Below are positions 54,447 through 56,743 of a stretch of DNA of 64,000 bases, one piece after another. A program made the position numbers and the translations under genes. Source of the DNA: Petrachloros mirabilis ULC683 (GTDB lineage: Bacteria; Cyanobacteriota; Cyanobacteriia; Thermosynechococcales; Thermosynechococcaceae). Within the stretch, counting starts at the first letter, position 1; each line of letters starts with the position of its first letter. The notes beneath the pieces are model-generated. The model had not been told where the DNA came from. It made no database searches and saw nothing but the letters and a program-made list of their open reading frames with translations. The DNA is taken from the NCBI RefSeq assembly GCF_009939295.1, contig NZ_WVIC01000018.1, positions 1 to 64,000 of the forward strand, read 5' to 3'.

Positions 54447-54570
54447 TTCTGGGGTGGTTGACGGGTGGCTGTATCGGCTGAATCTGTCAAGGGAAATCAC
54501 CCCAGTGGATACGCTAGGCTGGCTGGAGAAATGTATTGCTGCTGTTTTGAGGACAAGAGGCATTGACATC

Positions 54571-54593
54571 TCCTCGACCTAAAGGTGCGAGGA
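54571..54593. repeat. Right-end stem-loop of tnpB element
   Basis: TCCTCG and CGAGGA pair perfectly, with ACC/GGT continuing the stem around a TAAA loop and one unpaired G. The tnpB stop codon lies 4 bases away, so the hairpin would be at the 3' end of any omega RNA made from the minus strand. Confidence 0.7.
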
Positions 54594-54596
54594 TTC

Positions 54597-55862
54597 TTAA
54601 GAGCACAAGACTCTTACTGGCTGTGCCAAGCAGCCTCTAAACTCTCCGAGCGAATCATCGAGCTTACTTGTATGCTTCCGAATTATGTTCAAGGCTCCAT
54701 TCCCATCAGCATTGACCAACCACCCCTTCTCGGTGCGGTACAGGCCACGCTTGACGCGCTTGCCCTTGAATACATACTTCGGCCTATTGTCGGCGTTCCA
54801 CACTGGCAGGATGTCAGCATCAAGCGCAGACGACTTGCTGGTGTAGGACTCCTCTTGTTCAACGCACTCAATCCCGTATCGTTCGCAGAGGCTTTCCAGC
54901 TTGCGCTTAAAGGTAAATATCGGGATCTGAGTGAAATTCTGATTGTTTCGCTTGCCCATATTGCCCCCTTGCTTGAGGTCAGGGTTGTAACCGATAACAA
55001 TCTTGCTGATGCCATTAGTGCGGCACCAATCAACGATATACCTGGCAGACTTATTCAGAAAGTCATTGACCTTGTGGTTGCGTCTGTCAAGCAGCTTGGC
55101 TTGCCGGTGGGTCAATCCGACAATACCTTGCCTGTCCTTAATGGCCTGAAGGCGGGCATTCTCCTTGTTGTACCACTGGTTGATGGACTTAACCCGCTTG
55201 CCGTCAACGATGAACGACTGGCGGGTGCTGAGGACGCAGGTGGCGAAGTTATCCAGCCCCAGGTCAATTCCAAGTATCTCGCCTGTTTGTATAGCCTGTT
55301 CGACCGCTGGTGCTTCGTAGATATAGGCCACATCAAAGTATCGCGCACCCAGCCTAGGGATGATGCGAACCTCTTTGACGACCTTATCCCGCAGCCTCTC
55401 GGGGACTTCAAATTGAACGTCTCCGTACTGACGGCGAAAAGAACGGGACATTGGAACCTTGAAGATCCAATCCTTGCCGCTCATCTTGGCCCAGTCCCTT
55501 GGGCGGACAGGAATCATCAGCAGAAAGTGTCCATCCTTCGGCAGGTATCCAGGTATCTTGACTTTGGCCTGATATCCTCCCGACTGCTTAAGCTGCAACA
55601 GTTTGAAGAACGACCGGAAAGACCTGTCTACAATCTTCAAGGTTTGCTGCGCTATGTCGGTAGGCAACTCTTTGTAGTTTTCGTTCTCCTTTGCGTAGTG
55701 ATAATTACCCTCGTAGGAAAGGTACTTGTGCTCTTGGAAAAAGTATTGCCGCACGTTAAAGAGGCCCACGTTGAACATGTTTTTGCTCAAGTGGCACATC
55801 TGCCTCAGCGCGTCAGATTGCTTTTTATCCAACCGAAGGCGGTTAGTTTGGCTCAAGAACAT
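54597..55862 (-). CDS. tnpB: TnpB RNA-guided nuclease (IS605 OrfB), zinc-finger-less type
   Basis: A 421-residue TnpB. The RuvC active site is complete: D200 in LGIDLGLDN, Glu near 337 in CVEQEESYTS, and D386 in VNADGNGALNI. The N-terminal part (SKNMFNVGLFNVRQYFF, AQQTLKIVDRSFRSFFKLL) is the REC/wedge-like region. The usual C4 zinc finger (CxxC...CxxC) after YTS is missing; YTSKSSALDADILPV is followed by a GKRVKRGLYRTEKGWLVNAD segment, as in one cyanobacterial clade. Members cut DNA guided by a right-end RNA. ATG 55862 is preceded by a hairpin. A long antisense frame over it is an artefact. Confidence 0.9.
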   Translation of the reverse strand: MFLSQTNRLRLDKKQSDALRQMCHLSKNMFNVGLFNVRQYFFQEHKYLSYEGNYHYAKENENYKELPTDIAQQTLKIVDRSFRSFFKLLQLKQSGGYQAKVKIPGYLPKDGHFLLMIPVRPRDWAKMSGKDWIFKVPMSRSFRRQYGDVQFEVPERLRDKVVKEVRIIPRLGARYFDVAYIYEAPAVEQAIQTGEILGIDLGLDNFATCVLSTRQSFIVDGKRVKSINQWYNKENARLQAIKDRQGIVGLTHRQAKLLDRRNHKVNDFLNKSARYIVDWCRTNGISKIVIGYNPDLKQGGNMGKRNNQNFTQIPIFTFKRKLESLCERYGIECVEQEESYTSKSSALDADILPVWNADNRPKYVFKGKRVKRGLYRTEKGWLVNADGNGALNIIRKHTSKLDDSLGEFRGCLAQPVRVLCS

Positions 55863-55975
55863 TTCGTATTCCCGCTAGATGCTAGCTATTCTAGCGGGAA
55901 CTCTAGAATAATGCCAGCAAAGCTGGCGCTCCTATCCCTCCCCGCCCTGAAGTGCGGGGGTCCCCGGAGGTTCTG

Positions 55976-56743
55976 ATGGTTGCAACGTCTGTGCGATCGC
56001 ATCTCACCATCACATGGGAGCCTCTCCCAGCGGATTTTATTTTACCCGATGACCCTGTGGAAAGTAACCTACAACCTCTGCTAGCCGCAGCCCTACGTGA
56101 GTCTTTAGAGCTAGCGGGTCGATTACACCCACCCATGTTAGTGGCGTCTAACTTTGGCCTGTGTGCCAAGGTCAACCAGAAGACGGTGGTCAAAGCCCCA
56201 GACTGGGTTTACATCCCGGCAGTGCGCCCCCACCCTGATAGTGAAATCCGCCGCAGCTACACCCCCCAAGCCGAGGGTGACACCGTAGCAGTGGTGATGG
56301 AGTTTATTTCTGAAACCGATGGCCATGAGTACTCTATTAATCCGCACTACCCCTACGGCAAGTGGTATTTCTATGAGCAAATTCTCCAGGTGCCTCTTTA
56401 CGTGATTTTTCACCCCTTATTCGAGGTAATCGAGGTATATGCGCTCATTCAGGGGCAGTACCAACAACAGTCACCGGATGAGTTAGGCCGTTATTGGATT
56501 GCCCCTCTCAACTTATTTTTAGGAACTTGGACAGGCTCAAAAGCTGAGGTAACGGGTTGCTGGCTACGCTGGTGGGATCAGTCTGGTCTACTTTTGCCCT
56601 GGGGAGTAGAGCAAGTGGCTCAAGAACGCCAACGAGCAGAGCAAGAGCGCCAACGAGCAGAGCAAGAACGCCAACGAGCAGAGCGATTAGCTGAACAGTT
56701 GCGCCAACTGGGGGTCAACCTAGAAAATGGCCAACAGGCATAA
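55976..56743 (+). CDS. Uma2 family (DUF820) nuclease with tandem-repeat C-terminus
   Basis: A 255-residue Uma2 protein with WEPLPADFILPDDPVESNLQ, KAPDWVYIPAVRP carrying the PD motif and VAVVMEFISE with the acidic ExS motif of a PD-(D/E)XK fold, followed by LYVIFHPLFEVIEVYAL. The C-terminus is a charged coiled coil built from three exact-like repeats of QERQRAE (DNA 56621-56683, 21-bp units). ATG 55976 follows CGGAGG. It lies immediately beyond the left end of the tnpB element (within about 10-20 bases) and 36 bases before an ABC permease gene. Function unknown. Confidence 0.82.
   Translation: MVATSVRSHLTITWEPLPADFILPDDPVESNLQPLLAAALRESLELAGRLHPPMLVASNFGLCAKVNQKTVVKAPDWVYIPAVRPHPDSEIRRSYTPQAEGDTVAVVMEFISETDGHEYSINPHYPYGKWYFYEQILQVPLYVIFHPLFEVIEVYALIQGQYQQQSPDELGRYWIAPLNLFLGTWTGSKAEVTGCWLRWWDQSGLLLPWGVEQVAQERQRAEQERQRAEQERQRAERLAEQLRQLGVNLENGQQA
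56621..56683. repeat. Three 21-bp tandem repeats within Uma2 gene
   Basis: CAAGAACGCCAACGAGCAGAG is repeated three times, the middle unit with one change (GAGCGCC). Each unit codes for QERQRAE, extending a coiled coil. Because units are a multiple of three, copy number can change without a frameshift. Confidence 0.8.

What the first reader, a model, noticed from the sequence alone, without database searches (positions are those of the whole stretch)
54545..55966. Solo TnpB without zinc finger, with predicted omega RNA
The nuclease keeps all three RuvC acidic residues but lacks the usual C4 zinc finger, and no TnpA is present. The right-end hairpin lies 4 bases after the stop, so an omega RNA would start inside the gene and use DNA beyond 54563 (toward lower coordinates) as guide. 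Such solo TnpB genes can be domesticated or retained by homing. The minimal active site and small size make this a useful natural variant to study.
Basis: partly seen in the sequence, partly recalled or inferred. Interest (0 to 1): 0.55.

Follow-up and report, generated by a model that had tools for sequence, protein, structure and literature searches.

The report
TnpB element inserted at start codon
A cyanobacterial jumping-DNA element that carries only an RNA-guided DNA cutter has landed exactly in front of a neighbouring gene's start codon, and many of its relatives have done the same, which suggests that this family's target motif often coincides with start codons.

Summary
The finding is real and its anatomy is now resolved. 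Window 54563-55975 (1413 bp) is a solo-TnpB (IS1341-type) element of the IS200/IS605 family. The 421-aa TnpB keeps D200/E338/D386 and has a confident full TnpB fold (pLDDT 89.7; Z 22.3 to ISFba1 TnpB, 20.6 to ISDra2 TnpB). The missing C4 zinc finger is no quirk of this copy: none of 56 full-length sequences (window copy plus 55 relatives) nor of 57 fresh clean ones has it. An omega RNA is well supported: synonymous conservation rises in the last ~30 codons, and 12 of 26 predicted pairs show double changes. The ends follow the IS608 guide/cleavage code; predicted TAM CCAT.
New: in cyanobacterial relatives the target is YCAT, the complement of ATGR. The window element sits immediately 5' of the ATG of a Uma2-type gene. 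Start codons are hit at 11 of 25 discovery and 16 of 47 fresh sites, against 4% of all and 12.8% of intergenic ATGR. Some left tips, this one included, place an outward Shine-Dalgarno (GGAGGT) before that ATG. Cleavage, omega-RNA expression, the TAM, and expression supplied to the neighbour are inferred, not shown.

The parts
54563..55975 (-). whole element, 1413 bp, inserted between 54562 and 55976
   Evidence: IS608-type end code and flank comparison with relatives
54597..55862 (-). tnpB, 421 aa, zinc-finger-free RuvC nuclease
   Evidence: AF2 model pLDDT 89.7; Z 22.3 to 8iaz, rmsd 5.0, 344 aligned
54563..54692 (-). predicted omega RNA scaffold (last ~31 codons plus right end); 5' limit approximate
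   Evidence: synonymous conservation in the last ~30 codons; 26 pairs, 12 with double changes, on 12 sequences; model R1 finds only this copy in the genome, 150 of 1106 first-look candidates scored
54543..54562 (-). predicted guide (first ~20 nt after TCAA; exact length unknown)
   Evidence: position by analogy with known TnpB systems (recalled); no perfect second site in the genome
54563..54566 (-). right cleavage tetranucleotide C_R = TCAA
   Evidence: seen in many relatives; identical to IS608 (PMC5934647 passages)
54593..54596 (-). right guide tetranucleotide G_R = GAAT, directly after the stop
   Evidence: sequence; identical to IS608
54572..54592 (-). right-end hairpin CCTCG..CGAGG
   Evidence: alone z -1.77, 10 of 200 shuffles fold as well; helix 5 with 4 double-changed pairs
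55869..55900 (-). 32-nt inverted repeat (11-bp perfect arms) 6 nt before the tnpB ATG
   Evidence: (0 of 100 shuffles); 37 of 59 fresh loci have one against 5.65 by shuffling
55888..55917 (-). promoter-like site CTGGCA-18-TAGAAT, -10 inside the inverted repeat
   Evidence: 1 found; shuffle mean 0.1
55940..55959 (-). left-end hairpin CCCCGC..GCGGGG
   Evidence: this 51-nt stretch alone folds no better than shuffles, z -0.11; the 113-nt left end z -3.88
55961..55964 (-). left guide tetranucleotide G_L = GGGA
   Evidence: goes with the TAM base
55966..55971 (+). GGAGGT, outward-facing Shine-Dalgarno in the element's left tip
   Evidence: 8 of 32 discovery tips and 9 of 53 fresh tips have a match of 5 or more, shuffles 0.96 and 1.2
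55976..55979 (-). left flank C_L / predicted TAM CCAT (reverse complement of ATGG)
55976..56743 (+). Uma2-family gene whose start codon abuts the element
   Evidence: PF05685; in-frame stop 4 codons upstream in the empty site; several homologues align from residue 1

Best explanation
It is a non-autonomous, solo-TnpB IS200/IS605-family element. A Y1 TnpA supplied in trans, now or in the past, moves it as single-stranded DNA; the left cleavage site CCAT is chosen by pairing with G_L (GGGA) and the right site TCAA by G_R (GAAT). TnpB, made from a promoter in the left end, binds an omega RNA cut from the 3' end of its own mRNA and uses the flanking DNA as guide to cut the re-sealed empty site next to CCAT, so that repair restores the element. 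In the cyanobacterial clade the target motif YCAT is the complement of a start codon plus purine, so insertions pile up directly in front of ATGs; the left tip, which here carries GGAGGT, probably restores a ribosome-binding site and makes the insertion tolerable. Shown by sequence: ends, motif code, predicted fold, active-site residues, RNA covariation, start-codon enrichment. Inferred: cutting, RNA processing, TnpA in trans, benefit of the Shine-Dalgarno.
For: Family and fold. RuvC triad invariant in 47 rows. Omega RNA. End code: TAM base and G_L agree in 27 of 29 discovery loci with the GRNAC motif (35 loci with a TAM picked by eye out of the 43, 6 of the 35 without motif) and in 52 of 53 fresh loci (59 examined, 6 without YCAT plus motif); 7 of 18 printed Bacillota and Synergistota loci read TTAT/AAAA by eye. 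Start codons: 11 of 25 and 16 of 47 against 76 of 1901 ATGR and 57 of 446 intergenic ATGR. Abutted genes include conserved ones, e.g. Ycf4, SppA-like, HbpS-like. TnpA was found beside 20 of 99 TnpB loci, all aligned at 42.5% identity or less.
Against: No activity data. The TAM was not tested and is taken from insertion flanks. Clade A (CCAT) and clade B (TCAT) may be a single evolutionary switch, so the code test has few independent events. No DNA-level empty site was found in relatives. 14 of 25 and 31 of 47 sites are not at start codons by the criterion used. The outward Shine-Dalgarno is missing in most tips of several subclades (e.g. Okeania, Prochloraceae). No intact TnpA was seen in the draft genome. 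Several loci (6 of 43, 6 of 59) show no such left end.
Confidence: 0.8

Rival explanations
1. The element is an inert relic: immobile and without nuclease function, kept by chance.
For: Single copy, no intact TnpA in the draft genome, no empty site found.
Against: Intact 421-aa frame, invariant RuvC triad, intact ends that fit the pairing code, perfect 11-bp arms of the inverted repeat.
Confidence: 0.2
2. It has been domesticated as an RNA-guided regulator of the flanking genes (TldR-like).
For: Solo gene placed next to a start codon.
Against: Catalytic residues retained; IS-like sporadic spread: 16 of 386 genomes drawn over the phylum and 78 of 388 of one order have a close relative (at most 4 candidates scored per genome, so lower bounds); the 15 abutting ORFs translated differ from each other.
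Confidence: 0.05
3. Start-codon enrichment has nothing to do with the element's design: YCAT is simply its target, and insertions just 5' of genes survive best because they do not break coding sequence.
For: Most sites are not at starts (31 of 47; 14 of 25); the Shine-Dalgarno is lineage-limited.
Against: Enrichment also holds against intergenic ATGR only (12.8%), although that background is ORF-based and rough.
Confidence: 0.45

Closest known systems
IS1341-group (solo TnpB) elements of the IS200/IS605 family
   Same: One tnpB gene between left and right ends, no transposase gene (group as described in passages of PMC9956272); RE with GAAT-hairpin-TCAA.
   Different: Zinc-finger-free TnpB clade; left target YCAT instead of TTAC (IS608) or TTGAT (ISDra2), both named in PMC5934647 passages.
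ISDra2 TnpB / ISFba1 TnpB
   Same: Fold over 329-344 aligned residues, RuvC nuclease, omega RNA at the 3' end of the gene (recalled).
   Different: No C4 zinc ribbon; 14-18% identity over the aligned part; different predicted TAM.
IS608 (Helicobacter pylori) end code
   Same: C_R TCAA and G_R GAAT identical; the C_L/G_L pairing rule fits (PMC5934647, passages read; the rule as I extend it is my inference).
   Different: C_L CCAT with G_L GGGA here, TTAC with AAAG in IS608.
IS10/IS50-type protection from outside transcription (recalled, not looked up)
   Same: An inverted repeat around the promoter with its 3' arm just before the start codon could hide the ribosome-binding site in read-through RNA.
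   Different: Here only inferred from sequence; the arms may instead be an operator or part of a divergent promoter.

Membership tests
RNA-guided TnpB nuclease | family profile match over the curated cut-off | tested here: met
   NF040570 202.4 bits, cut-off 100
RNA-guided TnpB nuclease | RuvC D-E-D triad | tested here: met
   D200, E338, D386 invariant in 47 rows
RNA-guided TnpB nuclease | C4 zinc finger (usual in the family; I do not take it as defining) | tested here: not met
   absent here and in the 55 relatives; present in 8 of 8 other PF01385 hits of the genome
RNA-guided TnpB nuclease | omega RNA from the 3' end of the gene | tested here: met
   as sequence evidence only; expression not testable here
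RNA-guided TnpB nuclease | RNA-guided cleavage next to a TAM | not testable with these tools
   needs an assay
IS200/IS605 family, IS1341 group | subterminal hairpins with guide/cleavage tetranucleotide code | tested here: met
IS200/IS605 family, IS1341 group | no tnpA in the element | tested here: met
   no other gene in the element; no Y1 profile hit in this part of the genome
IS200/IS605 family, IS1341 group | mobilised by a Y1 TnpA in trans | not testable with these tools
   inferred from the ends
IS607 family | serine recombinase and its ends | not tested
   no search for serine recombinases was made; the ends fit the Y1 code
TldR (nuclease-dead TnpB) | loss of the RuvC catalytic residues | tested here: not met
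   triad intact

The most novel reading that the evidence does not exclude
This clade of TnpB elements has specialised on start codons: the target/TAM YCAT reads ATGR on the other strand, and the left end is a portable 5' leader (outward Shine-Dalgarno, and an inverted repeat that may act as a divergent promoter) which takes over expression of the gene it lands on. Even insertions in front of important genes such as ycf4 or an S1 gene would then be harmless, and TnpB homes into start codons.
Probability: 0.3. Interest if true: 0.75.

Novelty: new variant of a known kind. Interest (0 to 1): 0.55.

Why it matters
It gives a concrete, testable case of how a transposon's target motif can match a universal feature of host genes so that insertion does little harm, which bears on the open question of how solo TnpB elements persist. 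It also offers a zinc-finger-free TnpB clade with a predicted TAM (YCAT), a defined omega RNA and defined ends, ready for activity tests. If the left end really drives the gene behind it, these elements are mobile 5' leaders.

Tried and rejected
Empty site by DNA similarity around trpG in the 29 genomes of the family search: none alignable across the insertion point (also none in the loci). One Uma2-like gene lies near trpG in one of them (G012). Rfam: no family at gathering score in the window. phmmer of the single sequence against PDB sequences: nothing at 0.01; the 47-row profile found 11 sequences, mostly Cas12f. Automatic left-hairpin detection was noisy and was replaced by the GRNAC motif, chosen after seeing the flanks. 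Guide search with YCAT and up to 3 mismatches: 7 places, one of them the locus itself and none perfect; the reversed control gave 0; by a rough estimate of my own 7 is near chance, so I draw nothing from it. The 463-aa antisense ORF over tnpB is a by-product of codon use: 1000 of 1000 synonymous shuffles keep it open. Divergent promoter: only one promoter-like site was found, on the tnpB strand, so it is unsupported for this copy. Papers: (TnpB, TCAT, TAM as whole words) found none; searches listed no paper whose title or start of abstract reports start-codon insertion; some searches were on other points. I saw listings, and passages of PMC9956272 and PMC5934647 only; the library lacks most subscription papers.

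Rows dropped or uneven. TAM assignment: of 43 loci, 35 got a TAM by eye; L169, L028, L177, L032, L035 and L068 got none and L003, L175 are duplicates of sites kept. Among the 35, L036/L038 and L060/L061/L062 are copies of the same sites. L022 counts as a miss because its first motif was taken, though the one next to the hairpin fits. Of the 25 start-codon sites, L178 is out (too little flank) and L025 counts as a non-start (open frame upstream); L024, L026, L041 and L066 have long ORFs but no usable right end and are outside the 25. Fresh set: 73 loci, 13 at sites already used and 1 with a short left flank left out, 59 examined, 6 without YCAT plus motif, 48 with both flanks; L203 (flank holds N) had counted as a start and was dropped, so 17 of 48 became 16 of 47. 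The figures on 73 loci and 69 proteins include the 13 repeated sites; one search gives those for fresh loci only. The omega-RNA alignment used 12 of 18 sequences printed; I left out the four Okeania and Hydrocoleum types with an extra hairpin, L173 and L180. In one search the first set (6) lies inside the second (14); only the Okeania set is separate.

Full report
What is there. A single tnpB gene lies at 54597-55862 on the minus strand (421 aa). It matches the TnpB family model NF040570 at 202 bits (cut-off 100) and Pfam OrfB_IS605 and Cas12f1-like TNB. The AlphaFold2 model built from a 47-row alignment is confident (pLDDT 89.7; residues 297-307 under 50) and matches solved TnpB and Cas12f structures along its length (ISFba1 TnpB Z 22.3, rmsd 5.0, 344 aligned; ISDra2 TnpB Z 20.6, rmsd 4.8, 329 aligned). 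D200, E338 and D386 are invariant in the 47-row alignment.

Zinc finger. It is also missing elsewhere: among 56 full-length sequences (the window copy and 55 relatives, 33-83% identical; 53 distinct) none has CxxC between RuvC-II and RuvC-III, 55 by script and L094 by eye. None of 57 clean proteins of the fresh set has it; the two CxxC hits are the C-terminal tail CRGC. The other eight PF01385 hits of this genome each hold two CxxC motifs. So this is a clade trait, not a defect of this copy.

Solo state. With a profile of five Y1 transposases, TnpA was found beside 20 of 99 fetched TnpB loci, all of them aligned at 42.5% identity or less (flanks up to 3 kb, shorter for many; the later loci L169-L264 were not searched). 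The own genome has a single copy of this TnpB and only two weak Y1 hits: a short fragment with a stop near a contig end, and an ORF that looks like a REP-associated transposase to me (the label is recalled). The genome is a draft of 79 contigs.

Omega RNA. Synonymous codons are unusually conserved in the last ~30 codons in the sets tested: 0.66-0.88 observed against 0.42-0.69 expected by amino acid (windows from codon 391 on). The first set lies inside the second; the Okeania set is separate. One further window (codons 311-330) passed the same mark in the nearest set only. The consensus fold of 12 sequences has 26 pairs, 12 with changes on both sides; in all five measures 0 of 500 shuffles reached the observed value, and the signal falls when the partners are slid. 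The covariance model finds only this place in the genome (150 of 1106 first-look candidates scored).

Ends and target. Right end: GAAT directly after the stop, a hairpin, then TCAA at 54566-54563. This is the G_R/C_R pair of IS608 (passages of PMC5934647). At the left end relatives share YCAT just outside the element and a GRNA tetranucleotide before the left hairpin. C goes with GG and T with GA: 27 of 29 loci with the motif (35 with a TAM picked by eye) and 52 of 53 in the fresh set, scored by a fixed script (59 examined). In 7 of 18 printed Bacillota and Synergistota loci (all 7 Bacillota) I read TTAT with AAAA. This fits the IS608 pairing rule. On the tree the window's clade is CCAT and its sister TCAT, so by my reading the number of independent switches is small. 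The element is therefore 54563-55975, with CCAT as predicted TAM.

Start codons. CCAT reads ATGG on the other strand: the start of the Uma2-type gene at 55976. In the joined empty site an in-frame stop lies 4 codons upstream. Among 25 discovery sites with both flanks, 11 sit at the start of an ORF of 80 codons or more with a stop within 30 codons upstream. Background in the flanks: 76 of 1901 ATGR, and 57 of 446 intergenic ATGR; p = 1.1e-9 and 1.2e-4. The fresh set, whose flanks I had not seen when the script was written, gave 16 of 47 (p = 2e-11 and 1.5e-4). The abutted ORFs include conserved proteins whose profile match begins near residue 1: Ycf4, HbpS-like, DUF29, a TrpD-like transferase, a LeuA-like enzyme, an SppA-like peptidase, and an S1 protein (the S1 and LeuA-like matches are below the NCBIfam cut-offs, and the S1 site, L066, is outside the 25). 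The sites are not fully independent, and the start criterion is ORF-based.

Left tip. Here the tip places GGAGGT 4 nt before the ATG (55966-55971; ATG at 55976). A Shine-Dalgarno match of 5 or more is found in 8 of 32 distinct discovery tips (shuffles 0.96) and 9 of 53 fresh tips (shuffles 1.2), in each case with 0 of 2000 shuffles as high. Related tips share it by descent, and most tips lack it.

Inverted repeat. A 32-nt inverted repeat ends 6 nt before the tnpB ATG; a promoter-like -10 (TAGAAT) lies in it. Cyanobacterial relatives keep arms of similar length and spacing. In a 23-sequence alignment that I selected for one register (CGC-18-GCG) 90.8% of cells pair and 3 of 8 pairs have changes on both sides; 0 of 500 shuffles reached the percentage paired, the changed cells or the covariation score, but 158 and 278 of 500 reached the number of changed pairs and of pair types. 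On the tree one pair switched once, and the 5' letter of another changed three times. In the fresh set 37 of 59 have such a repeat against 5.65 by shuffling. It may be an operator, a hairpin that hides the ribosome-binding site in read-through RNA, or part of a divergent promoter; I cannot separate these.

Reading. The most likely account is a solo-TnpB element of the IS200/IS605 family that is or was moved by TnpA in trans and is retained by TnpB cutting of the empty site, with a target motif that in cyanobacteria coincides with start codons. Whether the element is built for start codons or merely survives there is open; I give the former about 0.3.

Noticed in passing
55869-55900: Conserved inverted repeat around the tnpB promoter-like -10 in cyanobacterial relatives; function open.
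   Followed up: partly
55913-55927 (-): Terminator-like hairpin GCCAGCTTTGCTGGC with a T-rich tail between the left end and the inverted repeat (1 found, shuffle mean 0.2).
   Followed up: no
54585-55976 (+): 463-aa open frame antisense to tnpB; explained by codon use (1000 of 1000 synonymous shuffles stay open).
   Followed up: yes
L004, L007, L010-L018 (genome G018): A same-family genome has 12 matches to a related TnpB, 11 of them at 37-40% identity, beside an intact or truncated Y1 TnpA.
   Followed up: no
L031, L034, L037: Okeania- and Hydrocoleum-type relatives carry a long extra hairpin inside the coding 3' end of tnpB, extending one stem of the predicted omega RNA (sequences).
   Followed up: no
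56620-56690: The Uma2-type gene has tandem ERQRAEQ repeats near its C-terminus.
   Followed up: no
L159 (own genome C64, near 31323): 181-aa ORF with a weak Y1 match, RAYT-like by eye.
   Followed up: no
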